DNA from: Flammeovirga pectinis | GTDB taxonomy: Bacteria > Bacteroidota > Bacteroidia > Cytophagales > Flammeovirgaceae | Assembly (NCBI RefSeq): GCF_003970675.1 | Contig: NZ_CP034562.1 | Location: forward strand, 2,852,001 to 2,916,000 | DNA: 64,000 nt | Direction of reading: 5' to 3' | Shown here: one piece after another, positions 31,373 through 43,445 of the stretch | Position numbering within the stretch: the first letter of the stretch is position 1 | Layout: every line of letters starts with the position of its first letter | Made by a program: the position numbers and the translations under genes | Notes under the pieces: model-generated | Told to the model about the DNA's origin: nothing | Seen by the model: only the letters and a program-made list of their open reading frames with translations | Database searches by the model: none

Positions 31373-32740
31373 TTAATCCTCGCTTAACATTCTGAGACGT
31401 TCAATTTCATTCAAATAATCAAGTTCTTTTCTGTTTAATTCTTCTTGAGTGGCTCGCATTTCTTCTAAATTCTGACGCATTTCTTCTTCTTGCGATCTCA
31501 TTTGTTCTGCTTGCTCTTGAGAAGTCTGTAATAATACCTTTAATTTCTCCGAGGCTAGCTTGTTTAAAATAGTAATTGCAAGACTCTCACAAACTCTTTT
31601 TAAGAACTGAAGTTGGTATTCTGATAATACATTAAAACATGCTACTTCAATAACTCCTTCAATTTTATCGTAAGCAAGTAATGGGTAAATTGCCACAAAA
31701 GAAGCTGTAGAATCTCCTAAGCCAGAGCTAATATTTAAATAACCACTTGGAACTTCCTCTAGAATAATTGGTTTTCTTTCAATAAAGCATTGCCCTATTA
31801 ATCCTTCACCTTGTTCTATCTTATTTGCGTTGAGATATTTTTTCCTATCGTATGCAAAAACAGATTGTCTTCTTAGATAATCTCCTCTTACTTTATCTTC
31901 TACTTTAGAATAAATAGCAACCTGATTTAAGTTCAATTCTCTTGCTAAAAAGCTAACAGACTGGTCTATCAAATCTTCTAAATTCTCTACTGAACGTGTT
32001 AAATCATTAAATTCTGATATTTTCTGAGTATTCCACGTTCTATTTTCATCTTGTACTTTAGTAAGTTTCACCTTATCTAAAGCATCTCTTAAACCTTTTT
32101 CTGAAGCTTCTAAAAGCTCATTTCTTTTTAAACTTTCATCTGTTAATCTTTCACTTTCTAAACGGTATCGCATACGTTCCTTTTGCATTAAATACAATAA
32201 AACTGCAAAACCAATAATACCAATTATTACTCCTCTTTTAGATTTAGGAGTATACATTTTGTCGTAATCAATGAGTGGATCTACTAAAAGGTCTGACAAA
32301 TAGAACATACTTATTAACCCTGCTCCTAACAAGAAAAATAGACTCCACTGATAGTACTTTTCTTTTACATCAAAAATTAAGAAAGGAATTAGTAAATGCA
32401 CTACACCAATTATATACCCAGATACTCTTGGTGCCGCATCGAATGGAGTAAGGTAAGAATTGTAAATTACCACAACTGCCATTGGCATTGTACTCATTAA
32501 AATCCTCGACAAGCTGTATAATCGAAGATGATTAAGGGCTAATACCGTAAGGTTTCCTAAGATTCCCATTAAAGGCCACTGTATTAATACAGGAACTTTT
32601 ATTATGGCTAAAATCAAGTAAAAGATCTGGAATATTGTGAGATAAAATGCAAATTGATTTGTTGTAATCACCTTTTCTTTAGTGATTCCAAATACATTTT
32701 TATCTATTCCTATATTAAAAATTTGTTGAAAAATATTCAT
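31373..32740 (-). CDS. Membrane GAF-domain sensor protein without output domain
   Basis: 455 residues. The N-terminal 190 hold about six membrane helices (a 7TM-type sensor head is possible). A coiled coil (about 190-245) leads to a GAF domain (about 245-400: ARELNLNQVAIYSKVEDK, GEGLIGQCFIERKPIILEEVP, ASFVAIYPLLAYDKIEGVIEVACF). The last 55 residues are a Glu/Gln/Met-rich coiled coil (QAEQMRSQEEEMRQNLEEM) of the sort that in Cytophagales usually continues into PAS or kinase domains; here the protein stops. It may signal through coiled-coil contact with another protein. Single leftward gene. Confidence 0.75.
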   Translation of the reverse strand: MNIFQQIFNIGIDKNVFGITKEKVITTNQFAFYLTIFQIFYLILAIIKVPVLIQWPLMGILGNLTVLALNHLRLYSLSRILMSTMPMAVVVIYNSYLTPFDAAPRVSGYIIGVVHLLIPFLIFDVKEKYYQWSLFFLLGAGLISMFYLSDLLVDPLIDYDKMYTPKSKRGVIIGIIGFAVLLYLMQKERMRYRLESERLTDESLKRNELLEASEKGLRDALDKVKLTKVQDENRTWNTQKISEFNDLTRSVENLEDLIDQSVSFLARELNLNQVAIYSKVEDKVRGDYLRRQSVFAYDRKKYLNANKIEQGEGLIGQCFIERKPIILEEVPSGYLNISSGLGDSTASFVAIYPLLAYDKIEGVIEVACFNVLSEYQLQFLKRVCESLAITILNKLASEKLKVLLQTSQEQAEQMRSQEEEMRQNLEEMRATQEELNRKELDYLNEIERLRMLSED

Positions 32741-32926
32741 TTTACAATGCTCAATCTTTATATTCTTTGCCTTTAAAAGGGCATTTTGATACTGAATTAG
32801 TGTTGTTTATTCCCTTAAGAAATTTTATCACTCAAAAAAGAAACGTAAATGTTTTTAATATGATTCTAAGTAGCTGTAAATCAGTATTTAAAATCACAAA
32901 TTATAAAAAACATTATAAAAATATTT

Positions 32927-32996
32927 AGTCAGTTTCTATAAAATGTAGTTCTTTTCAGTTGTTGCAAACTTAAAAAAACATTTTATAGGACTGACT
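32927..32996. repeat. Long interrupted inverted repeat at the left edge of the element
   Basis: AGTCAGT (32927) and ATAAAATGT (32938-32946) are mirrored by ACATTTTAT (32978-32986) and ACTGACT (32990-32996), with a 31-base loop and a T run after the right arm. It may be a terminator, or a recombinase or regulator site bordering the element. No copy was found at the right end. Confidence 0.5.
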
Positions 32997-33028
32997 TTTT
33001 TATTTAACGCAAAAAACGTACTGAAATT

Positions 33029-33298
33029 ATGAGTTATGTAAATGTTTTAAGAAAGAAAAGACTATTAGAAAACTACTCAGACTATTTACAGAAGGAAATT
33101 GATGAGCTTAAAAAATCAGTTGGAGATACTTTAGTTGAATTAAGCAAGGTTCGTCCATCTAATTTAGAAACAGTACAACAAAATTTATTTCAAACCGAAG
33201 ATTTATTGGAAGAATTTAAAGTATTGAAAGAAGCTAATAATAGAGCTCTAGAGAACATAAACATCATAATGAGTAAGAACTATGCAAATGATAATTAA
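33029..33298 (+). CDS. Small coiled-coil protein, unknown
   Basis: 89 residues, nearly all helical and charged (KKRLLENYSDYLQKEIDELKK, LFQTEDLLEEFKVLKEANNRALENI), predicted to form a coiled coil. The 3' end overlaps the start of the next frame by 17 bases, so the two are translationally coupled. Whether it belongs to the element or to the host is open. Function unknown. Confidence 0.5.
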   Translation: MSYVNVLRKKRLLENYSDYLQKEIDELKKSVGDTLVELSKVRPSNLETVQQNLFQTEDLLEEFKVLKEANNRALENINIIMSKNYANDN

Positions 33299-33560
33299 AC
33301 TTCTCCTAATGGTCTCTGTATTGGTGCTTTGCTCATTTGCAGATAAACAACCAACTAAAGTATTTATAACTACAACACAATACAAAGCAGATATTAAGGT
33401 ATTTATATCAAATAAGGCTATTAGTAGTAATGGAACTATTAGCAATGATAGTTTTAGAAACCCTGATTATCTAATTGTAGACTCTGAATATGTAGCGGAT
33501 GAAAGAATTTATTTAGTAGGACAGCGATACAGAGCTGATTTAATCCTACAGATGCTATAG
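33282..33560 (+). CDS. Small exported repeat protein (DUF6150-like)
   Basis: 92 residues. Signal-like hydrophobic start (MIIKLLLMVSVLVLCSFA); the second ATG at 33288 may be the true start. The mature part repeats a short unit ending in Tyr-x-Ala-Asp: KVFITTTQYKADIKVFISN, DSEYVADERIYLVGQRYRADLILQM, as in the Bacteroidota family DUF6150 (recognised from memory of the pattern). Overlap with the coiled-coil gene suggests one operon. Function unknown. Confidence 0.5.
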   Translation: MQMIIKLLLMVSVLVLCSFADKQPTKVFITTTQYKADIKVFISNKAISSNGTISNDSFRNPDYLIVDSEYVADERIYLVGQRYRADLILQML

Positions 33561-33627
33561 GTGAAATCTATAACGATTAAAAATAGGATAAATAAAGAGT
33601 GTTAACAAGTGATTTACAAATATAATT

Positions 33628-33765
33628 ATGCAAAACAAAAGAGTATTAAGCAATCTGACGACAGAACAATTAAGAGAGGTTTATCTCTTTTTTGTAAGCA
33701 ACTCAGAGGCCAGTGTGATAACAATGTTACAACAACGATTGAAAGATGAAAAAATAATAAAATAG
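33628..33765 (+). CDS. 45-residue protein, unknown
   Basis: A short frame from ATG 33628 to TAG 33765 encodes a helical, charged protein (LTTEQLREVYLFFVSNSEASVITMLQQRLKDEKI). The amphipathic pattern suggests a folded two-helix peptide rather than chance. It lies between the exported repeat protein and the primase gene on the same strand. Its stop codon is inside a 15-bp repeat (33756-33770) found again at 39977-39991. Confidence 0.4.
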   Translation: MQNKRVLSNLTTEQLREVYLFFVSNSEASVITMLQQRLKDEKIIK

Positions 33766-33770
33766 CAATC
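33756..33770 (+). repeat. 15-bp direct repeat, left copy
   Basis: AATAAAATAGCAATC, identical to 39977-39991. The two copies bracket the primase and head genes (6.2 kb) but leave the integrase outside. Confidence 0.45.
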
Positions 33771-33873
33771 AAAATAAACAGCAATAACCAATAGTAATTA
33801 ATCAATAGCAGAATAATCTAAAGAAAATCTTTAGGCATTATTTTAAAAAATAGAGTAGTAAAATATAAGCCAT

Positions 33874-33918
33874 AAAAAAAAGAGGTATTAGAAGATTTCG
33901 ACCCTTTCTAATACCTCT
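33874..33918 (-). terminator. Hairpin with T run on the - strand, before the primase gene
   Basis: AGAGGTATTAGAA (33881-33893) pairs perfectly with TTCTAATACCTCT (33906-33918). On the - strand the stem is followed by a T run (33880-33874); on the + strand it is followed by AGGGCG, so it acts leftward. The only leftward gene upstream is the one at 36152-36805, whose transcript would have to cross the whole primase gene to reach it. Confidence 0.6.
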
Positions 33919-33957
33919 AGGGCGTATTTCGCTACCCTTTATACAAGTACAAATATA

Positions 33958-36159
33958 GTGAAAAATAGACTTTTATACAACTGTATCTTAGAAGAAAATT
34001 ATACACTTTCTAATGGAGAGAGTACGTTTTCTTTTAACCCAAAAGGCGATTTAATTATAAATTACGCCCTTTCAGATGGCAGACCTTTACCGTATAGACC
34101 TAATGGTTATAAATGGGAGAAAAACTTTACTAGAACAAGATTTTTAAACCCAATAAATAACAAATACTCTCAAGCTAAGAACTCGGGAAGTCATTTATTT
34201 ATTAATGGCTTACTTTATTATATTTCTAATAATACAGATAATGTAAACTCTTTTTCTGACTTAAAAGATATCTATATTGTAGAAGGAGAAAAGAAATCTT
34301 ATTATTTGAATTTACTAGGTATTCCTTCTGTAGCCTTCGGTGGACTAGAAACAACTCAAGCCTTTTTAAATGGAAATAAAATCAAAAGAAGCAAATTAAA
34401 TTCTCTAATAACTGAAGCTGAAGAAAATAGAGAAGCTCCAGTAGAAGGAATTGAAGAGCTATTACACGAAGAATTACTAGAGTTAACCTCTAAATGTACA
34501 AACCTAAAAAGAATAACTCTTTTACAAGATGCTGATTGCAGATATAAGAATGATATTTTTAGAGCTGATGACAATAAACATTTAGGATTTTTAAAAGCTA
34601 TAATCAACTTTACAAAAGCAGTAAGTAGAATTAAGAACTCTAAAGGTCAACTTATAGAGCCTTTTTATATTAACCATGAACCTTTGCACGACATTGGAAA
34701 AGGTATTGATGACTGTTTAGAGAATTTAGGTAGAACTAAACAGGATAAACTTCTAAGGTGTTTAAAAAATAAGAGAAATTACTACTCTAAAATTTTTAAT
34801 AAAGAAACTTTTGATTACGATTTTAACAGTAGTGATAATGGAGAACCATTAATTAATGTATTCCATTTATGGTCTACCTCTTTTAAATATATATCAGATT
34901 ACTTTACTATTGAGAATCCATTAACTAAAACTGAAGCAATAGATAATGCTATTGAAAACGGCTTAAAAGAAAGTGAATTAAGAACTGTTTTTAAGAGAAA
35001 TTTAGGATTTAATGATGATGTAGACCTAAATAAAATCAATTCTAACAATACTTCTAAAGATTTTGATATTGTTACTCCATATATCAGAGTAGAAGCATTT
35101 TCAACCTTCTCACACGTTCCAAAGGTTATTCATACAGTAGTAGCAAATAAATGTTTAATTAATAAATCTTCTTCAGGTCAATTTCATTCTATTTTGCATC
35201 AAACAAAAGTATCTACTTCAGAGATTGAAGAATTTATTATTGAAGCATCGAAAAAGCTGTGGAAAATAAATTTCATGCTATCTACTGAAGAAGATTTGAA
35301 GCAGAATATTTATGATATTAGCTCCTTAATATTCATTGAAGCTATTGAGCGAAATTTGATTATTAATTATACTGATGTAATTGATTTAGTTTCTATGATA
35401 GATTTTAGTAAAGTAAAAAAAGCTACTATAAAATATTATCAACTAAATAGCGAAAGAATTATTCCTTTACACATAATCGGTGGAATAGCTCAGAGAAGTA
35501 AACGTTTATATAATAACGATTTTAATACTGAAGATTACGCTGATTTTATTTTAGAAGGAATGACTGTAGAAGAAATGGCTTACAACACTGGTAAAAGCTC
35601 AAAAACCATTAAAAGTGATATTAAAACTATTTTTGGCTATGATTATACCAAAACAGATGCAACACAAATAAAAATATATAACTACTGCCAAATATATATA
35701 GAACAAGCTATGTTAAATGGCTATTCTGAAGAAGAAGCTTTTAAAAATATTGATAAGAAAAATGTAGCAGAATGTATAAATATATCTTATGCTTCAATTA
35801 AAAGAAATTGGGAAGGCTCAAAAACGGAAAAAGCTATATATAGTAATTGCTTATATATAGCTTTTTCCAAAAATGAGCCTTCTAATAAAAAAGTACTTTC
35901 TGAAGATAATATTACTAAATCACTTTCTTTACAATATTCATTTTATACAGATGAAATAAAGGATAATCCAGAATTTTATATGAATAGAGCTAAATCAGAT
36001 AAAGAGCCATTTAAAGAAGTGACAATGTCAGAGATTCCTATGTACTCTAAATCTACTAACACAAAAGAAGTGCGCACTGAAGATGTCGATACTAAAAATA
36101 TTCATTTTAATGACTTAGAACGAGGTAAAGGTTTTAACTTTTGTAATGGAGCTATCTAA
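33958..36159 (+). CDS. Toprim-domain primase-like replication protein of the element
   Basis: 733 residues. The start is GTG at 33958; the frame is open back to a TAG at 33889 without another start codon. A Toprim (DUF3854-like) core is seen: IYIVEGEKKSYYLNLLG with Glu109/Glu111, FGGLETTQAFL, and ITLLQDADCR with Asp191 and Asp193. An acidic insert (about 141-170) splits it. The region about 531-562 resembles a helix-turn-helix (MTVEEMAYNTGKSSKTIKSD). No Walker A motif or zinc ribbon is visible, so it lacks a helicase and would need a host or helper enzyme. It is the likely replication initiator or primase of the element. The last eight bases overlap the convergent gene at 36152. Confidence 0.6.
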   Translation: MKNRLLYNCILEENYTLSNGESTFSFNPKGDLIINYALSDGRPLPYRPNGYKWEKNFTRTRFLNPINNKYSQAKNSGSHLFINGLLYYISNNTDNVNSFSDLKDIYIVEGEKKSYYLNLLGIPSVAFGGLETTQAFLNGNKIKRSKLNSLITEAEENREAPVEGIEELLHEELLELTSKCTNLKRITLLQDADCRYKNDIFRADDNKHLGFLKAIINFTKAVSRIKNSKGQLIEPFYINHEPLHDIGKGIDDCLENLGRTKQDKLLRCLKNKRNYYSKIFNKETFDYDFNSSDNGEPLINVFHLWSTSFKYISDYFTIENPLTKTEAIDNAIENGLKESELRTVFKRNLGFNDDVDLNKINSNNTSKDFDIVTPYIRVEAFSTFSHVPKVIHTVVANKCLINKSSSGQFHSILHQTKVSTSEIEEFIIEASKKLWKINFMLSTEEDLKQNIYDISSLIFIEAIERNLIINYTDVIDLVSMIDFSKVKKATIKYYQLNSERIIPLHIIGGIAQRSKRLYNNDFNTEDYADFILEGMTVEEMAYNTGKSSKTIKSDIKTIFGYDYTKTDATQIKIYNYCQIYIEQAMLNGYSEEEAFKNIDKKNVAECINISYASIKRNWEGSKTEKAIYSNCLYIAFSKNEPSNKKVLSEDNITKSLSLQYSFYTDEIKDNPEFYMNRAKSDKEPFKEVTMSEIPMYSKSTNTKEVRTEDVDTKNIHFNDLERGKGFNFCNGAI

Positions 36160-36805
36160 TCTCAATTTTTAATACTTCAGATATAGACTTTAAACCTTCT
36201 AATTTCAGTTTTATAGGTTCACTATTGTTACCTTTTAATTTGGTTGAATCAAATAAAACTCGATACTCTCTTTGGTAATCATGGTCTTTGGTTTTAGAGA
36301 AGTAATTTAACTTCCCATTATATGTATTTTTATCGTAAAAATTAACAGTGCCATATTCTAGGGATTTTGTTATTCCTAATTTCTTTAGTGATGATTCTAT
36401 CATACTGATTAATTTGCGAGGGTCTTTTATTAATAAAGCATACTCACCAAAATCAATCATTCTGTTATCAATTTTATTGTATTCAATATGATTGCTTTTT
36501 TTATCAATTTTAACCTCGAGAAAAAATAAGCTACAAATATGCTTGTTAGCATTTTTATCATAAGCTGTATGTTGTGCCGACCCGTTTTCTGCAATCTTTA
36601 AATTAATGTAATCAATTCCATCTTTTGATAACTGAAGTGATGTTAATTGTTGGTTAATTAAATTCCCTTCTTTAGGGTCATTTCGTTTTATATTATCTCT
36701 ATCACTATCCTTAAAATCAAAGATTTTTTTAAAATATAAATACTCATTTTCATACATATCCCTAATAATTTCTTCTCTCTGAAATTTCAATAAGTAGTAA
36801 TCCAT
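36152..36805 (-). CDS. Lone leftward accessory protein of the element (DUF2971-like pattern), possible defence gene
   Basis: 217 residues, no signal peptide or membrane segment. I do not recognise the family with certainty. The C-terminal half (KIDNRMIDFGEYALLIKDPRKLI, LEYGTVNFYDKNTYNGKLNYFSKTKDHDYQREYRVLF) follows the order seen in DUF2971-like proteins: an FGEYA/acidic motif, a V-Y-x-D strand, then FxK...YQxEYR. Such proteins are common cargo of phages and defence islands. It is the only gene of the element's interior on the - strand, which in satellites marks separately expressed cargo. An AAGGAG-like stretch lies 18 bases before the ATG, unusual for this phylum. The function is inferred from position only. 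Confidence 0.5.
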   Translation of the reverse strand: MDYYLLKFQREEIIRDMYENEYLYFKKIFDFKDSDRDNIKRNDPKEGNLINQQLTSLQLSKDGIDYINLKIAENGSAQHTAYDKNANKHICSLFFLEVKIDKKSNHIEYNKIDNRMIDFGEYALLIKDPRKLISMIESSLKKLGITKSLEYGTVNFYDKNTYNGKLNYFSKTKDHDYQREYRVLFDSTKLKGNNSEPIKLKLEGLKSISEVLKIEIR

Positions 36806-36852
36806 ATAATTATTAATTTATCTCCTTTTATCTCTAGTATAAAGTTATCAAG

Positions 36853-36895
36853 AATAATCTATTCAGAAAGAATCATTTAATAGATTATTTTTTTT
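36853..36895 (+). terminator. AT-rich hairpin with T run, rightward
   Basis: AATAATCTATT (36853-36863) and AATAGATTATT (36879-36889) pair perfectly, followed by TTTTTT. The nearest rightward gene upstream is the primase, so its transcript would cross the leftward gene at 36152-36805 before ending here. The stem is weak in GC. Confidence 0.5.
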
Positions 36896-36979
36896 AAAAA
36901 AACAACCTAAAAAGATTGAAATAAGTTTACAATCATCCATTAGCTATACAATATATATAGAAGATAAAACTCATATAAA

Positions 36980-37144
36980 ATGGATGACATAACTAAAAAA
37001 ACTACTTCACTTCAGATACACATTAGGTTAACTAAGGAAGAAGTAAAACAATTAGAATTAGCGATGGAACTAACAAAATCGAAATCAAAAACAGATTTCA
37101 CACGCAAAGCATTATTCAATCACATTATCAGAACTTTATATTAA
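36980..37144 (+). CDS. 54-residue ribbon-helix-helix DNA-binding protein
   Basis: From ATG 36980 to TAA 37144. After a polar lead, LQIHIRLTKEEVKQLELAM and KSKTDFTRKALFNHI form the strand-helix-helix of a ribbon-helix-helix (Arc/MetJ-type) protein, the usual fold of small repressors and of mobilisation accessory proteins. The portal gene ATG follows the stop with no gap (TAAATG), so the two are translationally coupled. A repressor or activator of the head operon, or a DNA-recruiting packaging factor, are both reasonable; the sequence does not decide. Confidence 0.6.
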   Translation: MDDITKKTTSLQIHIRLTKEEVKQLELAMELTKSKSKTDFTRKALFNHIIRTLY

Positions 37145-38311
37145 ATGAGCTTAACAAAAAACATTAAACAGCTTTTTTCTCCTACAGAGCAAAGGAGCGA
37201 AACAATAGGATTTATAGATGATACTACTTCTAATTTAGTCGATTCTGATTTAGAGCGAGAGCAATGGACTACACTAACAGATAAGTTAGGAGCAAATGGC
37301 TCTTACCTAACTTCTGAAATCGTTACAATGTTAGCCAGTACTCCAATACAACAGTTTGATAATCAAACTAATTTTGTATTCACAAAGGGCTTTAAGAATA
37401 GAGTGCCATTGCTTACACCTTCTCTCACGTCTAAGAGAGCTTTTTACCAAAGTTGTATAGCAGATATTCTGAAATATGGCGTTGCTTATGCTACATATGA
37501 TAGCAACAATAGAATACAGTATTTAAAATACAATTCATGCACCTTAAAAAGTGATTGGAGTGCTCCATATACTAATTATGAATTGGAAGTAAGTAACGTA
37601 GCTCAAAGTGGGAAGAAAAGTAATTCATTTACTTTGAATCAGAAGCAGTTTTGCATGTTCATGCACCCAATTTTTAGTAGCTCTCAATATGCTAATAAAC
37701 CAATGGAATTTGTAAATAACTATCAGAGTATGTTAGCAGAGATTGATAGTTTAGACGAGAGCCTTGCTAAAAACAGAGGTGTTGGAGCTACTGTAATCTC
37801 AACAGCAACCAAAGTGAGAGATGGTCAGGCTAGTAAGATACTTGAGAAATTCAGAGAGAAAATCGTTAAGACAGGAATGATAATCTTTGAAGGTGCTTTA
37901 TTAGATAGTAAACCATTGACCCCAGCTTCAGCGAATGATAGAAGTTTGTTCAATGAAAGTAGAAAATACTCCAATAATCAGATAGCTAAACTATTTTTAA
38001 TTGATGCTGAAGCCTACTCTAAAGCAAATTCTGAAGAAAAATTTATGTTATTACAGGCATGGCAGAATGTGTTCCTATCAGAATATGAAAATACACTTTT
38101 AGAACCTACTCAGAGCTTCAGATTTAATTTCTTAGCATCTAATTATGTAAATGTATCAGATAGAGAAACGGTAGTTCAATCGCTTTTTACTTCTAATAGT
38201 ATTGATTCAAAAGGAGTGCAACGTATCTACAATTTAACTGATATGAATGTTAATAATGATTTCATATCTGTTCAAGTACAAAATAAAAATAATATAGAAA
38301 ATGAAAAATAG
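37145..38311 (+). CDS. Phage portal-like protein
   Basis: 388 residues. The layout fits HK97-type portal proteins: LTSEIVTMLASTPIQQF at the start, a beta-rich clip region, the helix QSMLAEIDSLDESLAKNRGVGATVIS, then KTGMIIFEGALLDSKPLTPASANDRSLFNESRKYSNNQIAKLFLI with the classic Q-I-A-x-L-F motif and a NSEEKFMLLQAWQNVFLSEYENTLL end helix (about 245-330). The portal is the ring at the head vertex through which DNA is packaged. It is short but within range. The start abuts the ribbon-helix-helix stop and its end overlaps the next frame by 11 bases. Confidence 0.72.
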   Translation: MSLTKNIKQLFSPTEQRSETIGFIDDTTSNLVDSDLEREQWTTLTDKLGANGSYLTSEIVTMLASTPIQQFDNQTNFVFTKGFKNRVPLLTPSLTSKRAFYQSCIADILKYGVAYATYDSNNRIQYLKYNSCTLKSDWSAPYTNYELEVSNVAQSGKKSNSFTLNQKQFCMFMHPIFSSSQYANKPMEFVNNYQSMLAEIDSLDESLAKNRGVGATVISTATKVRDGQASKILEKFREKIVKTGMIIFEGALLDSKPLTPASANDRSLFNESRKYSNNQIAKLFLIDAEAYSKANSEEKFMLLQAWQNVFLSEYENTLLEPTQSFRFNFLASNYVNVSDRETVVQSLFTSNSIDSKGVQRIYNLTDMNVNNDFISVQVQNKNNIENEK

Positions 38312-38516
38312 AGAAGTCAACCCAAATCATAGATTTTCTAAAGAAGATAATTTAAGCGAATGGAGAGCTTATATAAATGAAGAAAAGCAACTACAGGAAC
38401 TTCTCCTTTCAATGCCTTTGAGAGAGGCTAGGAAACTGATGAGCCAACCATTTTTCAAGCGACAAATGGAGATTAGAATGGCTGAATTTGAACAAGACAG
38501 GAAAGAACAACGATAA
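38301..38516 (+). CDS. 71-residue charged helical protein, possible scaffold
   Basis: Overlaps the portal gene by 11 bases. It is strongly charged and helical throughout (EDNLSEWRAYINEEKQLQELLL, LREARKLMSQPFFKRQMEIRMAEFEQDRK). Its place between portal and capsid is where phages encode the scaffold or head protease; it has no protease motif. A short scaffold is a positional inference. Confidence 0.5.
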   Translation: MKNREVNPNHRFSKEDNLSEWRAYINEEKQLQELLLSMPLREARKLMSQPFFKRQMEIRMAEFEQDRKEQR

Positions 38517-38554
38517 TAATTTTAATAAAACACAGACAATAAAAATATAATAAT

Positions 38555-39304
38555 ATGGCATTTAACGACCAACAACCCAATATGGGAAAAGTAGATAAAT
38601 TTGTATCATTCGATTCTGCAAAGTATGCGAATTTAGAACGTTTCAATATTTTAGAATACAATCAACTAACAGAGATTAGAGAAGTCACTACTTTTAGTCC
38701 TACAATTTTAACGCTTACAAATAGCGCAACTGATGTAGGTTTTGTAACAGATGTATTAACAGAAGACTATGTTCGCACAAATGGCGTAAATTTTGGATTT
38801 AGTTTGAAATCTGACTTTTCTATGAGATTTGCAAAGCAAGGAGGTGAAGATGTTTTAAATCCAATACATAGCAGTATTTGTGGCATGGTTGAAACAAATT
38901 TAGTTCAAGAAATTATTGCTTCAGCTTCTCAATATGGCACAGCAATACCTTATACTACTGGTAATGAATATCAGGCAATTACTATAGCTGTAGCAAAAGC
39001 AAAATCTTACTGTAATGATAATGACTCAATAAAGATAATGTGCCCTACTTTGGATGCTTATTTAATTGAGCCATTAACTAAAGATGATGGTTTATTAATG
39101 GGCGTAGAAGTTTTATACACTGATGTAGTTACTGAAATTCTAGTAACTGTAAAGGGGTACGCAATAGTGAATACAGAGCGTTCTGCCATTTATGACAAGT
39201 TCTCTAAAGGAGGTAATGCTGAAGCACAATTTCAGTACTCTATCTTGGGGAAGTACTCTTATTCTAAATCAGAAGATTTTGTTTATAAAATCTTAGAATC
39301 TTAA
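38555..39304 (+). CDS. Major capsid-like protein
   Basis: 249 residues. The N-terminal arm (MAFNDQQPNMGKVDKFVSF) is followed by a long helix of the HK97 P-domain type (VETNLVQEIIASASQYG), ITIAVAKAKSYCNDNDSIKIMCPTLDAYLI as the A-domain helix and strand, then GVEVLYTDVVTEILVTVKGYAIVNTERSAI and a C-terminal strand. Position directly after portal and a short charged protein fits the major capsid protein. It is small for the fold, so it may build a small head; a head-decoration protein is the main alternative. There is no upstream propeptide protease. Confidence 0.55.
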   Translation: MAFNDQQPNMGKVDKFVSFDSAKYANLERFNILEYNQLTEIREVTTFSPTILTLTNSATDVGFVTDVLTEDYVRTNGVNFGFSLKSDFSMRFAKQGGEDVLNPIHSSICGMVETNLVQEIIASASQYGTAIPYTTGNEYQAITIAVAKAKSYCNDNDSIKIMCPTLDAYLIEPLTKDDGLLMGVEVLYTDVVTEILVTVKGYAIVNTERSAIYDKFSKGGNAEAQFQYSILGKYSYSKSEDFVYKILES

Positions 39305-39307
39305 AGT

Positions 39308-39382
39308 ATGGGAATGCTATTTTTTATAATTGGGTTAGGTAGTTTATTATACCTAGCCCTATTAAAATTTGAAACTAAATGA
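39308..39382 (+). CDS. 24-residue membrane peptide
   Basis: From ATG 39308 to TGA 39382: MGMLFFIIGLGSLLYLALLK then a polar FETK end, a single membrane helix. Its stop overlaps the next start as ATGA (39379-39382), the classic translational-coupling arrangement, which supports real translation. It could be a holin-like or membrane-anchoring peptide; size alone cannot decide. Confidence 0.4.
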   Translation: MGMLFFIIGLGSLLYLALLKFETK

Positions 39383-39687
39383 AAATTTACAAAGCTACTC
39401 GTGGGGATGATGTAAGACTCCTTATGAAGGATAAGCCATCTTCTGAAGCTATTACTTATTATAGTCAATGCAGAAGAAGGGAGAATATTTCTTCTTACGT
39501 AGAATTAACTACAGAAGTAGTGGAAGGTAGTATTTATCTAGTAATCCCTTCTGAAGTATCAAAGGGGTTAAACGGGTATTATTATTTTGATATTGAACAA
39601 ACTTTAGAAGGGGGGTTAATACAAACTATCGAGCGTGGAAGTATTTTAATTATTCAGCCCGACACAACTAAGCGAAGTAATGATTAA
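39379..39687 (+). CDS. Probable head or connector protein of the element
   Basis: 102 residues, beta-rich. It opens KIYKATRGDDVRLLMKDKP and has a central GLNGYYYFDIEQTLEGG, IQTIERGSILIIQPDTT. This RGDD-start, YYxDIE and G-x-I-x-I-x-PD-x-T pattern occurs in small structural proteins of Bacteroidota phages, recognised only loosely. Overlap with the membrane peptide places it in the head operon. Function unknown. Confidence 0.45.
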   Translation: MKIYKATRGDDVRLLMKDKPSSEAITYYSQCRRRENISSYVELTTEVVEGSIYLVIPSEVSKGLNGYYYFDIEQTLEGGLIQTIERGSILIIQPDTTKRSND

Positions 39688-39705
39688 CTATAATAGAATA
39701 AAACA

Positions 39706-39933
39706 ATGAATGACATATATTTTTTATACAACGGAATAATTAGAACAGCTAGAACTAAAGAAGAACTAAACGATTTAATAAATATCGGCTTTGTGGCTTT
39801 AGCGTCCTATAGTCCTACAAAGAAGATGGTTTATGATTTAAGCCACAAAACACCTGAGCAATTGTTTCTTTTAACTGAAGCATTGAAAAATGAAATAAAA
39901 GCTGTAGATAATTATGGTATTAACATGTATTAA
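39706..39933 (+). CDS. 75-residue protein, unknown
   Basis: Last frame of the rightward head operon, 18 bases after the previous stop. Two short strands (DIYFLYNGIIRTART) precede helices (KEELNDLINIGF, TPEQLFLLTEALKNEIKAVD). A compact small domain with no recognised family. The operon terminator follows within about 60 bases. Confidence 0.45.
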   Translation: MNDIYFLYNGIIRTARTKEELNDLINIGFVALASYSPTKKMVYDLSHKTPEQLFLLTEALKNEIKAVDNYGINMY

Positions 39934-39954
39934 TATATATTTGCATAGAATCGT

Positions 39955-40011
39955 AAGCTATTAAAATAGCTTTTAGAATAAAATAGCAATCTTTTTAGGT
40001 TGCTTTTTTTT
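39955..40011 (+). terminator. Terminator of the head operon (two hairpins)
   Basis: A first small stem AAGCTATT/AATAGCTT (39955-39972) is followed by a second, AGCAATC/GGTTGCT (39985-40003, one G-T pair), with a T run to 40011. Confidence 0.75.
39977..39991 (+). repeat. 15-bp direct repeat, right copy
   Basis: AATAAAATAGCAATC, identical to 33756-33770; its 3' half is also the left arm of the operon terminator. Confidence 0.45.
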
Positions 40012-40032
40012 ATATCTTTACAATAGCTACAA

Positions 40033-40164
40033 AAAAAACTTTTGAAAATAAGGTGAGAAGCCAGTACAATCTTCTCTCGAATGGCTGTAGATATATTTAC
40101 CCTCCCCCCTTCCTTAAAATACACTTTAGGATGGTTTATACCACTTTAGAAAAAACTTTTGAAA
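40033..40164 (+). repeat. Two 15-bp iteron-like direct repeats
   Basis: AAAAAACTTTTGAAA occurs at 40033-40047 and 40150-40164, 117 bp apart. Possible integrase arm sites, initiator iterons or packaging sites. Confidence 0.45.
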
Positions 40165-40189
40165 TCGACTCGCTACTTACTATAAGGAT

Positions 40190-40201
40190 AACCACGTGGT
40201 T
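40190..40201. promoter_or_regulatory. 12-bp perfect palindrome AACCACGTGGTT
   Basis: A perfect palindrome with a CACGTG core, GC-rich compared with its surroundings, 25 bp after the second iteron-like repeat. A likely dimer-binding site; the protein is unknown. Confidence 0.4.
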
Positions 40202-40274
40202 TGTCACTACTTTCTCTTAAAAACAGCTACATACCCCTATCTTTTTTATCTAAACCATTATTTATTTTAAAACT

Positions 40275-40314
40275 AAACAGAAAATAAATGTAATACAATG
40301 TAACTTTTCTGTTT
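40275..40314. promoter_or_regulatory. Inverted repeat AAACAGAAAA / TTTTCTGTTT with inner tandem repeat
   Basis: Ten-bp arms at 40275-40284 and 40305-40314 enclose AATGTAA twice with a 10-bp period (40287 and 40297). A protein-binding site at one-turn spacing is suggested. Confidence 0.4.
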
Positions 40315-40499
40315 CATTTACGTATAATAGCAGAGATAACGCAAACATCAGTTGTAGGTAGAAGGAGAGCCAATAACAGTAACTCTCCTTCGCAATTGAT
40401 TTCAAGATACTATATAAAGAGTAGAATTAGTTCGTAATACCACATTCTAATATCACTTTATCAGAAATTGAGTCACTCGTAAAACAGTGGCTCTTTTTT

Positions 40500-41792
40500 T
40501 TATTTCATATTATAAATAGTTTTATCGAAGCCATTTATTATCATTATTAAAAGGTCGATATGTTGCTCATCCTGGCACACTTCCAAGAACTTCTTAACTA
40601 TCAACTTCTTCTGATGCATTACATCTGACTCATCTGCTAAACCTTGTATGCTTATGCTATCATTCATACTATTAAAACCTTCAATGTAATATGAAGCGTA
40701 CACATCACTTGCTTGCATCTTCTTGGTATTAGTCATTACATAGTTATGCTGTGTAACGTCTTGACTGGTAACGTGATTCCAATCATTCAAAGTTATAGCA
40801 TCTACTCCTTTTTCAAACATTACAGTAACCATGAACTTCCTACAGCTATGGAGGTTAACGTTATTACCTAATATAGTTCTAACACGCTTTACTTCTCTAT
40901 TGATATAAGATTTGTTTGCTAGGTTATCATATACATCTATTAGCAGTGTGTTCTTCTTTGTATTATACACATCAAAATGCTTTGATATATTAGTGTAGTG
41001 TAGCCATAGATTGATATTACAAAATACTCTCTTAATAGTTCTTGTTTTATTTTTTAGTGGTATATAATCAAGTATTACATAACCTCTATTAACTGTAAAT
41101 TGTTCTTCTCTTAATTCCATTATTTCTTCAGCTCTTAACCCAAACAACAAAGCCACCTTCCATAGTAGACTATCGTGTTTAGATAATAAGAAGTCGGCAG
41201 ATTTTGAATCCATATTCATAGAAGCTACTCTTTGTACTCTTACAGGTGTTATCTGTTTAGATACTATAGGAGAGTTAATATCTAATGGTAAGGGTAGTTT
41301 AAAATGGTTTACAGCAATTTTAATAGCATCTATAAAAGCTACACCTAAGTTAGATTTTGTACTATCTGATTTAGGGTAGTTGTCTATTTTAGATAGTATT
41401 GAAGAAGCCATTTCTAAATTTAACTTGTTCAGGTTAAAATCTGTTTTGATTATCTTACCTTCTAAAGTATTGTATCTACTTAGATATGATGATGAAGTTC
41501 GTTTTACTTTCTTAATTTCTGAAAATAATTCAAATATTGTTTTAATTTGAAAGTAGTCAGAATTACCTATGTACTGGTTCTTTGCTTCAATTACCTTCTT
41601 CTCAATTTCTAATAGAGCTAATTTATTATGGTCTTTTTGGTTGCTATCAATTGGAGATTTATATATAAACAACTTAGTTTTTATGTACTCTCTTTTGTTA
41701 TCTTCATCATCTAAGTAGATGGCTAACGTTTGTCTACCACTTTGCGTTACTGGGTACTTATGTTTACCTACTCTTATTATCTGCTTATTCAT
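40500..41792 (-). CDS. Tyrosine recombinase (phage integrase)
   Basis: 430 residues. An N-terminal arm-binding-like region (1-80) and a SAM-like core-binding domain (about 80-180) precede the catalytic domain. Catalytic residues: Arg220 (FGLRAEEIMEL), His315-x-x-Arg318 (LHSCRKF), His340 (WNHVTSQD) and Tyr351 (QHNYV). The spacing from His340 to the Tyr is a little longer than usual. It should integrate and excise the element. It reads leftward into the structured region and its promoter (-7 box TATATTTG on the - strand, 41829-41822) faces pncB, the usual arrangement of an integrase next to the attachment site. Confidence 0.9.
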   Translation of the reverse strand: MNKQIIRVGKHKYPVTQSGRQTLAIYLDDEDNKREYIKTKLFIYKSPIDSNQKDHNKLALLEIEKKVIEAKNQYIGNSDYFQIKTIFELFSEIKKVKRTSSSYLSRYNTLEGKIIKTDFNLNKLNLEMASSILSKIDNYPKSDSTKSNLGVAFIDAIKIAVNHFKLPLPLDINSPIVSKQITPVRVQRVASMNMDSKSADFLLSKHDSLLWKVALLFGLRAEEIMELREEQFTVNRGYVILDYIPLKNKTRTIKRVFCNINLWLHYTNISKHFDVYNTKKNTLLIDVYDNLANKSYINREVKRVRTILGNNVNLHSCRKFMVTVMFEKGVDAITLNDWNHVTSQDVTQHNYVMTNTKKMQASDVYASYYIEGFNSMNDSISIQGLADESDVMHQKKLIVKKFLEVCQDEQHIDLLIMIINGFDKTIYNMK

Positions 41793-41821
41793 ATCTAATC
41801 TTATATATATAATTATATATT

Positions 41822-41829
41822 CAAATATA
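41822..41829 (-). promoter_or_regulatory. -7 box (TATATTTG) of the integrase gene
   Basis: An exact TAnnTTTG match on the - strand, 30 bases before the integrase ATG. Confidence 0.45.
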
Positions 41830-41902
41830 ATTTATTATAACAAATAAATAGAATAATATATGAAGTTTACTGTTTTTATAGCATTTAATAAGGTTTTATT
41901 CT

Positions 41903-41910
41903 TATATTTG
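41903..41910 (+). promoter_or_regulatory. -7 box (TATATTTG) of pncB
   Basis: An exact TAnnTTTG match, giving a leader of about 60 bases before the ATG at 41976. It limits the right end of the element to before this point if pncB kept its own promoter. Confidence 0.5.
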
Positions 41911-41975
41911 TAATGCAACAACAACGAGGAAAGAACGTAAATTCAATTTTCATAGTATAAAAAATCATGCTATAA

Positions 41976-43445
41976 ATGAATATTTCACAAGACTTATATA
42001 GAACTTCTTTAACATTACTCACAGATCTTTACCAAATTACAATGGCTTATGGCTATTGGAAGAAAGGTTTTGCTGAAAAAAAGGCTGTTTTTCATGGTTA
42101 TTTTAGAAAATCTCCTTTTAAAGGTGGTTTTGCTTTAAATGCTGGTTTAGCCTATGTTATAGATTTTTTAAATAACTTTTCTTTTGCAGATGATGACATT
42201 AAATACCTTAGTACAATTACAGATGCAGAAGGCCAACCATTATTTGAGGCTGATTTTTTAGAGTATCTAAGAAACTTACAATTTGATCTTACAATTCATG
42301 CAATTGAAGAAGGAACAATAATTTTCCCGAACGAACCTTTTATTAGGGTTACTGGTAGTTTACTTCAATGCCAATTAATAGAAACTGCTCTTCTAAATAT
42401 TATCAATTTCCAAACCTTAATTGCTACTAAAGCTGCTCGATTAAGAATTGCTGCTAAAGACGATCAATTATTAGAATTTGGTTTAAGAAGAGCTCAAGGA
42501 ATTGACGGTGGAATTTCTGCTACTAGAGCTGCATATATAGGTGGTTTTAATGCAACTTCTAATGTATTAGCTGCTAAACTATTAGACATCCCTGTTAAAG
42601 GAACACACGCACACAGTTGGATAATGTCTTACGATGATGAGTTACAAGCATTTAAAGCCTACGCTGATGTAATGCCTAGCAATTGTATTTTTCTTGTTGA
42701 TACCTATAACACACTAGAAGGTGTAAAAAATGCCATTACTGTTGGCAATTCATTAAAAGAAAAAGGATATGCAATGAATGGTATCCGCTTAGATTCAGGT
42801 GATTTATCTTACCTAAGTATAGAGGCTCGTAAATTACTTGATGATGCCGGTTTTACAGAAGCTTCTATTGTAGCAAGTAATGATTTAGACGAGTACCTAA
42901 TCAATAGTTTAAAGATAGAACAAAATGCCAAAATCAATGTTTGGGGTGTAGGTACTAAACTGGTTACAGCTTACGATCAACCTGCATTAGGTGGTGTTTA
43001 TAAGCTAAGTGCAATTCAGGATGAAAATCAAAAATGGCAATACAAGGTCAAATTATCAGAACAGATAAATAAAATTTCTACACCAGGGATTTTACAAGTT
43101 AGACGCTTTAAAAACGCTAACGGTAAACTTAATGCTGATATGATCTTTAATGAAGAAGAAAACATTAGCAATAACCCAATACTTATTGACCCTAATAATG
43201 GAATTCGATCTAAGAAAATAGACAAATCAAAAAATTATGAGGATTTACTAATTCCTATCTTCGAAAATGGTAAATTAGTCTATAATTCTCCATCCATTCA
43301 TAGTATTCAACTTAAAACAATAAAAGAATTATCGCAGCTTGATGATAGTATAAAAAGGTTTTATCACCCACATGAATATCCTGTAGGGCTAGAAAGCACT
43401 CTTTATAACTTAAAAATGAATGTAATTCACAAATTAAAGTCATAA
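41976..43445 (+). CDS. pncB: Nicotinate phosphoribosyltransferase
   Basis: 489 residues. The family start LLTDLYQITMAYGYWKKG, the YFRKSPFKGGFALNAG region, LEFGLRRAQGIDGGISATRAAYIGG with GTHAHSWIMSYDDELQAF (the phosphohistidine loop region), and GIRLDSGDLSYLS are all present. It makes nicotinate mononucleotide from nicotinate and PRPP in NAD salvage. A NUDIX regulator of the family that controls NAD genes in other bacteria is 16 kb away, but no shared site was found. It follows the integrated element and ends at an AT-rich terminator (43482-43523). Confidence 0.95.
   Translation: MNISQDLYRTSLTLLTDLYQITMAYGYWKKGFAEKKAVFHGYFRKSPFKGGFALNAGLAYVIDFLNNFSFADDDIKYLSTITDAEGQPLFEADFLEYLRNLQFDLTIHAIEEGTIIFPNEPFIRVTGSLLQCQLIETALLNIINFQTLIATKAARLRIAAKDDQLLEFGLRRAQGIDGGISATRAAYIGGFNATSNVLAAKLLDIPVKGTHAHSWIMSYDDELQAFKAYADVMPSNCIFLVDTYNTLEGVKNAITVGNSLKEKGYAMNGIRLDSGDLSYLSIEARKLLDDAGFTEASIVASNDLDEYLINSLKIEQNAKINVWGVGTKLVTAYDQPALGGVYKLSAIQDENQKWQYKVKLSEQINKISTPGILQVRRFKNANGKLNADMIFNEEENISNNPILIDPNNGIRSKKIDKSKNYEDLLIPIFENGKLVYNSPSIHSIQLKTIKELSQLDDSIKRFYHPHEYPVGLESTLYNLKMNVIHKLKS

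What the first reader, a model, noticed from the sequence alone, without database searches (positions are those of the whole stretch)
33029..41792. A compact integrated element that looks like a new phage satellite
Seen: in about 8.8 kb there are a tyrosine integrase, a Toprim primase-like protein, a portal-like and a capsid-like protein, a ribbon-helix-helix regulator and small unknowns. Known: satellites such as P4, PICIs and capsid-forming PICIs have this size, an integrase, a replication gene and few structural genes. Inferred: it is a Bacteroidota satellite. I know of no described family with this gene order.
Basis: partly seen in the sequence, partly recalled or inferred. Interest (0 to 1): 0.85.

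Follow-up and report, generated by a model that had tools for sequence, protein, structure and literature searches.

The report
Phage-like integrated element lacking packaging motor
A 9.1-kb mobile DNA element sits cleanly inserted in a bacterial chromosome and carries an integrase, a replication-type protein and a small phage head-gene cassette (a real portal protein, a possible capsid protein) but no recognisable packaging motor or tail genes, so it most likely spreads only with the help of another phage.

Summary
The element is real and its ends are now mapped. In six of eight other genomes of the genus the two flanking genes are neighbours without it; against the closest of them the insert is 32851-41942 (9,092 bp) with a 9-bp repeat AACGTAAAT at both junctions. 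It carries a tyrosine integrase, a Toprim/DUF3854-like protein with a strong hairpin inside its gene, a reversed phage-type gene, and a cassette RHH-portal-orf71-249 aa-orf102-orf75. The portal passes Pfam's cut-off (E 1.5e-10), though PHROGs and NCBIfam do not see it. orf102 is predicted as an Ig-like fold whose best matches in a viral library are phage proteins. The 'capsid' is NOT confirmed: no profile or database match, structure prediction failed. No terminase, protease, tail or lysis gene was recognised in the insert. No sibling element turned up in the samples scanned. Best reading (0.5): a helper-dependent satellite that makes part of its own head and borrows at least motor and tail. 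A cut-down prophage (0.27) and a phage-interference island stay open. It fails defining features of capsid-forming PICIs. New variant of a known kind; moderate interest.

The parts
32842..32850 (.). left att core AACGTAAAT
   Evidence: alignment with the empty site of the closest relative breaks at 32850; same 9 bp at the right end
32851..41942 (.). the integrated element, 9,092 bp (one att copy included)
   Evidence: empty site in relatives; G+C 29.1% vs 31.6% for the window, 83% coding
33029..33298 (+). orf89, unknown
   Evidence: best profile E 0.005, unknown function; codon score positive
33282..33560 (+). DUF6150 protein with a hydrophobic N-terminus (signal-like)
   Evidence: Pfam PF19647 E 7.9e-7, 29.4 bits vs cut-off 27
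33628..33765 (+). possible 45-aa ORF
   Evidence: not tested further
33881..33918 (.). 13-bp perfect hairpin before the Toprim gene
   Evidence: DNA fold z -3.9
33958..36159 (+). Toprim/DUF3854-like protein, 733 aa, HTH-like C-terminal part (by eye): putative replication initiator/primase
   Evidence: aligns with L047 689 aa (E 1.2e-15), L048 842 aa (2.2e-8), L049 609 aa (2.6e-5); IVEGEKK at 107 and LLQDADCR at 188
35812..35882 (.). large hairpin inside the Toprim gene (codons 619-642); candidate origin
   Evidence: DNA fold -22.8 kcal/mol, z -9.4, 0 of 200 shuffles as good; third strongest hairpin in 64 kb by a simple score
36152..36805 (-). orf217, phage accessory-type gene
   Evidence: phrog_26561 E 5.8e-5, phrog_13198 E 1.4e-4; tblastn 25% to a hypothetical gene of Vibrio phages, E 0.01, the last annotated gene of record PQ189284
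36896..36918 (-). left copy of a 23-nt inverted repeat around the head cassette
   Evidence: fold no better than chance (z 0.1) and not listed by the terminator scan
36980..37144 (+). 54-aa ribbon-helix-helix-like protein
   Evidence: NikA-like E 0.0028, below cut-off; Tn5252_Orf10 0.0057, Bacteroid_MobA 0.008, below cut-offs
37145..38311 (+). portal protein, 388 aa
   Evidence: PF04860 E 1.5e-10 above cut-off; hhalign best of 77 clusters is the portal cluster, 252 columns
38301..38516 (+). orf71, small charged protein overlapping the portal stop; scaffold candidate (position and look only)
   Evidence: no Pfam match; weakest positive codon score
38555..39304 (+). 249-aa protein, candidate major capsid protein
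   Evidence: position after the portal; sequence and structure tests negative or failed
39308..39382 (+). possible 24-aa hydrophobic peptide
   Evidence: codon score positive; no profile search
39379..39687 (+). orf102, Ig-like phage structural protein (connector/decoration/baseplate type)
   Evidence: phrog_1084 E 2.3e-4, unknown function; model pLDDT 69; viral library best E 4.8e-7
39706..39933 (+). orf75, unknown
   Evidence: no match; codon score positive
39985..40009 (+). terminator closing the head cassette; holds the right copy of the inverted repeat
   Evidence: z -3.4
40500..41792 (-). tyrosine integrase, 430 aa, next to the right att
   Evidence: candidate active-site segments GLR at 218, HSCR at 315, WNH at 338, HNY at 349 (assignment recalled)
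41934..41942 (.). right att core AACGTAAAT

Best explanation
A helper-dependent phage satellite. Shown: a 9.1-kb insert at a defined site with a 9-bp att repeat, an integrase, a Toprim-type protein, a portal protein and a predicted Ig-like phage structural protein, and no recognised terminase, protease, tail or lysis gene. Inferred: the integrase excises the element at AACGTAAAT; the Toprim-HTH protein starts replication, perhaps at the hairpin inside its own gene; the RHH protein represses the head cassette or marks the DNA for packaging; portal, orf71 and the 249-aa protein build a small procapsid with orf102 as connector or decoration; a helper phage supplies the packaging motor (TerL), tail and lysis.
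For: Empty site in 6 of 8 other genus members, sharp ends and att repeat. Portal above Pfam cut-off and best of 77 clusters by hhalign. orf102: phrog_1084, 68 matches at E<=0.001 in a viral structure library, best 4.8e-7, including a Cellulophaga phage structural protein and a BppU-N protein; the one PDB match at E<=0.001 is a phage portal-adaptor chain. Toprim residues invariant in four proteins. The 12 element ORFs scored with correct coordinates are all coding-like, 9 of 10 mechanical ORFs in other frames are not. No terminase hit among element proteins in Pfam, PHROGs, NCBIfam (orf71 also 85, orf75 only 84 and 85), while Pfam and PHROGs find HK97 terminase, portal and capsid at once.
Against: The capsid identity is unproven. 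PHROGs and NCBIfam name no portal family for the portal and PDB sequences give nothing relevant. No sibling in the samples searched: portal as query in 395, 390 and 18 genomes (samples may overlap) gave, besides itself, one, two and no weak hits. No other PF04860 portal in the host genome, and phrog_2 finds only a PhoH-like ORF and one weaker unread hit; that phrog_2 is a TerL family is recalled and HK97 TerL did not list it, so absence of a resident helper is not settled. No cos/pac site, TerS or capsid-size gene identified.
Confidence: 0.5

Rival explanations
1. A cut-down prophage: a tailed phage that lost terminase, tail and lysis genes and keeps integrase, replication and part of the head module.
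For: Portal and Ig-like structural protein are of tailed-phage type. HK97 places terminase before the portal and connectors and tail after the capsid, so two deletions from such an order would give this one. No siblings, no helper seen.
Against: The main ORFs are open and coding-like; both att ends are present; the head cassette is flanked by a 23-nt inverted repeat, 22 of 23 complementary, whose 19-base right version has no second exact copy in the genome, one copy being a terminator: this looks like a unit rather than a ruin. This last point is weak, as the left copy folds no better than chance.
Confidence: 0.27
2. A phage-interference (defence) island: portal, the 249-aa protein and orf102 are co-opted to poison assembly of incoming phages, and orf217 and the DUF6150 protein are further cargo; the element is not packaged in heads of its own.
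For: orf217 resembles a hypothetical gene that is the last one in a Vibrio phage record; ends of temperate phage genomes are a usual place for cargo (recalled). A portal without a motor cannot package DNA by itself (recalled).
Against: No credible PADLOC match among nine element proteins scanned (best E 0.017, a Cas9 model over the portal; orf71 and orf102 were not scanned).
Confidence: 0.13
3. An integrative mobilizable island whose RHH protein is a relaxosome protein, moved by conjugation, with phage genes as passengers.
For: The RHH profiles that come closest are relaxosome proteins; a DUF3854 relative sits beside a tyrosine integrase in a region with no match to the window's portal (L047).
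Against: No relaxase recognised in the insert; RHH hits are below cut-offs.
Confidence: 0.06
4. A capsid-forming PICI (cfPICI).
For: Integrase, replication-type protein, portal, possible capsid in a small island.
Against: cfPICIs encode large and small terminase, HNH nuclease, head protease and connectors (passage of PMC10690885); no terminase, HNH or protease was recognised.
Confidence: 0.04

Closest known systems
Capsid-forming PICIs (cfPICI)
   Same: Small integrated element with integrase, replication-type protein and head genes of its own; needs a helper.
   Different: cfPICIs carry large and small terminase, HNH, protease and connectors and depend on the helper only for tails (introduction passage of PMC10690885); here no terminase, HNH or protease was recognised.
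Streptomyces satellites MulchRoom and MiniFlayer
   Same: Satellite-encoded portal and capsid; MulchRoom has a tyrosine integrase.
   Different: They have both terminase subunits and lack obvious replication genes (abstract and passages of PMC10690885); here the reverse: a replication-type protein and no terminase.
P4 and SaPI-type PICIs
   Different: They redirect helper capsids with scaffolding proteins (same passage) rather than encode a portal.
DUF3854 island of a genus mate (L047)
   Same: Homologous Toprim-like protein beside a tyrosine integrase.
   Different: No match to the window's portal or other head proteins in the 17 kb fetched.

Membership tests
Tyrosine-recombinase integrative element | site-specific insertion with short direct repeat and empty sites in relatives | tested here: met
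HK97-type portal (PF04860) | score above the curated cut-off | tested here: met
   41.2 bits vs 39.1, E 1.5e-10; PHROGs and NCBIfam silent
HK97-fold major capsid protein | profile or fold match of the 249-aa protein | tested here: inconclusive
   no profile match; model pLDDT 27.6, unusable; hhalign no signal in 77 clusters
Toprim/DUF3854 replication protein | score above Pfam cut-off | tested here: not met
   15.9 bits vs 23; relatives L047 and L049 pass
Toprim/DUF3854 replication protein | conserved E and DxD residues | tested here: met
   four proteins; role of the residues recalled
cfPICI | large and small terminase subunits | tested here: not met
   no hit; HK97 large terminase control found (small terminase not used as control)
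cfPICI | head maturation protease and HNH endonuclease | tested here: not met
   no hit
cfPICI | portal protein | tested here: met
cfPICI | major capsid protein and head-tail connectors | tested here: inconclusive
   249-aa protein unresolved; orf102 Ig-like, could be a connector
Complete tailed prophage | terminase, tail and lysis genes | tested here: not met
   over the mapped insert
Phage satellite (general) | mobilisation and packaging by a helper phage | not testable with these tools
   needs induction and particle sequencing
P4-like / PICI | capsid-size remodelling gene or TerS | tested here: inconclusive
   no such profile hit, but such proteins diverge fast (recalled)
Integrative mobilizable element | relaxase | tested here: not met
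   no hit

The most novel reading that the evidence does not exclude
A 'procapsid-only' satellite: it makes its own empty head (portal, small scaffold, capsid, connector or decoration) but no packaging motor, with the RHH protein, standing where terminase genes usually stand, acting as an adaptor that brings a helper's TerL to the satellite's DNA and portal. This would be a third way, between satellites that remodel helper heads and those that bring head plus motor.
Probability: 0.25. Interest if true: 0.75.

Novelty: new variant of a known kind. Interest (0 to 1): 0.5.

Why it matters
If the reading holds, head and motor genes can be inherited apart in satellites: a satellite portal would have to dock with a foreign terminase, which is a directly testable protein-protein question. 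It would also extend head-encoding satellites to Bacteroidota, for which the listings of my searches that named the phylum or its groups (open-licence papers only) showed no example. If it is a cut-down prophage, it is ordinary.

Tried and rejected
Sibling search: portal, 249-aa, Toprim, integrase, orf217, DUF6150 and orf102 as single proteins in IMG/VR, portal and integrase in genome contigs (17, 59), portal, 249-aa, Toprim and integrase against phages, portal, integrase and Toprim against plasmids: no relative found. orf217 and orf102 gave weak phage hits (27, 28); those of orf102 (E 0.2 or worse, in primase genes) I treat as chance, as I do the three E 2 hits of the 249-aa protein (67). The search for related loci needs short exact peptide matches, so its silence is weak evidence. 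An alignment of four Toprim proteins found 3 IMG/VR loci; phmmer with the window's proteins found only the Toprim match, in one of them.

Weak portal hits (L002-L005) and weak 249-aa hits (L035-L042) I judged chance. I read the ORFs of L006, L007, L050 and L051: a coiled-coil-like protein, a different element, and sensor-kinase-type proteins (my reading by eye). L002, L003, L008, L035 and L038-L042 I did not read.

Control for 'portal without terminase': PF04860 over 384 genomes of the order matched in 44, 31 above cut-off, the window's own included. I fetched 41 loci around such hits, which are 38 places (three are second fetches with longer flanks). Chained phmmer from three TerL seeds, two of them taken from these loci, found a TerL-like ORF in 21 of 41 loci, 19 of 38 places. 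The other 19 places include flanks of only 1.5 kb, below-cut-off hits and perhaps diverged TerLs, so this control is not clean and does not show that a nearby TerL is the rule. The window differs in that its ends are mapped.

In one search the 45-aa ORF had wrong coordinates and that row is dropped.
Full report
What is there. The window lies in a 6.68-Mb, 3-contig genome. Between a GAF-type gene (31373-32740, -) and a nicotinate phosphoribosyltransferase-like gene (41976-43445, +; both names recalled from the sequences) lies an insert. In six of eight other genomes of the genus the two genes are neighbours, 144-165 bp apart by the matched coordinates; the other two had no match to the phosphoribosyltransferase gene. 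Aligned with the closest relative (both proteins 95% identical), the left flank matches up to 32850 and the right flank from 41930, and AACGTAAAT stands at both junctions. That 9-mer occurs four times in the window in all, so the repeat alone would be weak evidence; its place at both breaks is what counts. The block around it is well kept in five of the six relatives, and the sixth has the 9-mer in a changed setting.

Gene content. Left to right: orf89, a DUF6150 protein (PF19647 above cut-off), the 733-aa Toprim-like protein, orf217 on the minus strand, then RHH(54)-portal(388)-orf71-249 aa-orf102-orf75 on the plus strand, a terminator (39985), about 0.5 kb without a convincing gene, and the integrase pointing inward from the right att. 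A codon score trained on 22 long ORFs outside the element is positive for all 12 element ORFs given correct coordinates and negative for 9 of 10 mechanical ORFs in other frames. 83% of the insert is coding.

Portal. PF04860, E 1.5e-10, 41.2 bits against a cut-off of 39.1, residues 95-347. PHROGs gave only a family of unknown function at E 0.027, NCBIfam nothing, PDB sequences one irrelevant hit at 0.8; HK97's portal, by contrast, hits several PHROG portal families. Against 77 ORF clusters, hhalign ranks the 33-member cluster that includes HK97's portal first: E 0.00065 and 252 aligned columns, next best E 0.037 and 49 columns, though its stated probability is only 27.7%. So the portal is real but far from known ones: tblastn finds nothing at E 10 in 50,697 phage records, and phmmer finds no match among the ORFs of 41 portal loci at E 1.

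The 'capsid'. I found no support by sequence, and single-sequence AlphaFold gave pLDDT 27.6. I still think it the likeliest coat protein, because it follows a portal and a small charged ORF and precedes a phage-type Ig-like protein; my own estimate is about 65%.

orf102. phrog_1084 at E 2.3e-4. The single-sequence model (pLDDT 69, pTM 0.56; only one of five models is that good) matches 68 viral models at E<=0.001, the best a 108-aa siphovirus protein at 4.8e-7, then a Cellulophaga phage phiST structural protein. In the PDB the one match at E<=0.001 is a chain of a phage portal-adaptor complex; most of the following rows are immune receptors. Ig folds are common, and VIA-align mixes phage and immune proteins, so the role (connector, decoration or baseplate) is open.

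Replication. The Toprim-like protein aligns with proteins of 689, 842 and 609 aa (E 1.2e-15, 2.2e-8, 2.6e-5). L047 and L049 pass DUF3854; L048 and L049 pass DUF5906 further on; the window and L047 proteins have no DUF5906 match. V108-E109-G110, D191 and D193 are invariant. Inside the gene, 35812-35882 forms a 26-pair hairpin, z -9.4. By a simple score it is third in 64 kb; the best of ten Markov controls reached 16.0 against its 19.4. It lies in an ORF; most of the other strong ones have the A-run/T-run look of terminators, which I did not check one by one. The L047 gene has no such hairpin (best score 10.8), which speaks against a conserved origin at this spot. Origin function is therefore a guess, by analogy with lambda, whose origin lies in its O gene (recalled).

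Cassette edges. The inverted repeat 36896-36918 / 39987-40009 has 22 of 23 pairs. Its 16-base core occurs only at these two places in the window at up to 2 mismatches, with 0.16 expected and 1 of 100 shuffles reaching two. A 19-base version of the right copy has two further places in the genome, each with 2 mismatches. The right copy is a terminator, z -3.4; the left folds no better than chance. They may insulate the cassette or mark it as a unit acquired together; neither is shown.

What is missing. No terminase, protease, tail, lysis, relaxase or HNH gene was recognised in the insert by Pfam, PHROGs or NCBIfam (orf71 on Pfam in 85, orf75 in 84 and 85 only; the 24- and 45-aa ORFs were run on none). 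HK97 controls were found at once by Pfam and PHROGs. Elsewhere in the host genome PF04860 finds no second portal.

How it works. See Best explanation. I rate helper-dependent satellite 0.5, cut-down prophage 0.27, interference island 0.13. What tips it to satellite is the combination of intact ends, an intact-looking integrase and replication gene, and open head genes; what holds it back is the lack of siblings, of a helper and of a proven capsid.

Comparison with the known. A passage of PMC10690885 describes cfPICIs as carrying capsid, protease, portal, connectors, both terminases and HNH: this element is not one. P4 and SaPIs use or redirect helper terminase and remodel helper heads (same passage). 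A review passage (PMC11389934) lists P4-like, PICI, cfPICI, PLE, PICMI, VEIME, Tycheposon and soil families. Head genes without a motor I did not see in what I read: search listings, and abstract or passages of PMC10690885, PMC11389934 and PMC12324425. This is a statement about those searches only.

Noticed in passing
window 35812-35882: Very strong hairpin inside a coding sequence (z -9.4), not shared by the homologous gene of L047.
   Followed up: partly
   Followed up: no
L093, L094, L095, L098: Portal-family hits with, by eye, tape-measure-like and capsid-like ORFs before the portal in L093 and L098, and no TerL found within the fetched 12-19 kb by chained phmmer.
   Followed up: no
L047 3877-8006: Island of a genus mate with a DUF3854 protein, a small DNA-binding protein and a tyrosine integrase, next to a large helicase-like protein.
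   Followed up: partly
window 41800-41976: The insertion splits a block upstream of the phosphoribosyltransferase gene that is conserved in relatives, so it may change that gene's expression; TATATTTG in the right arm resembles a Bacteroidota -7 promoter box (recalled).
   Followed up: no
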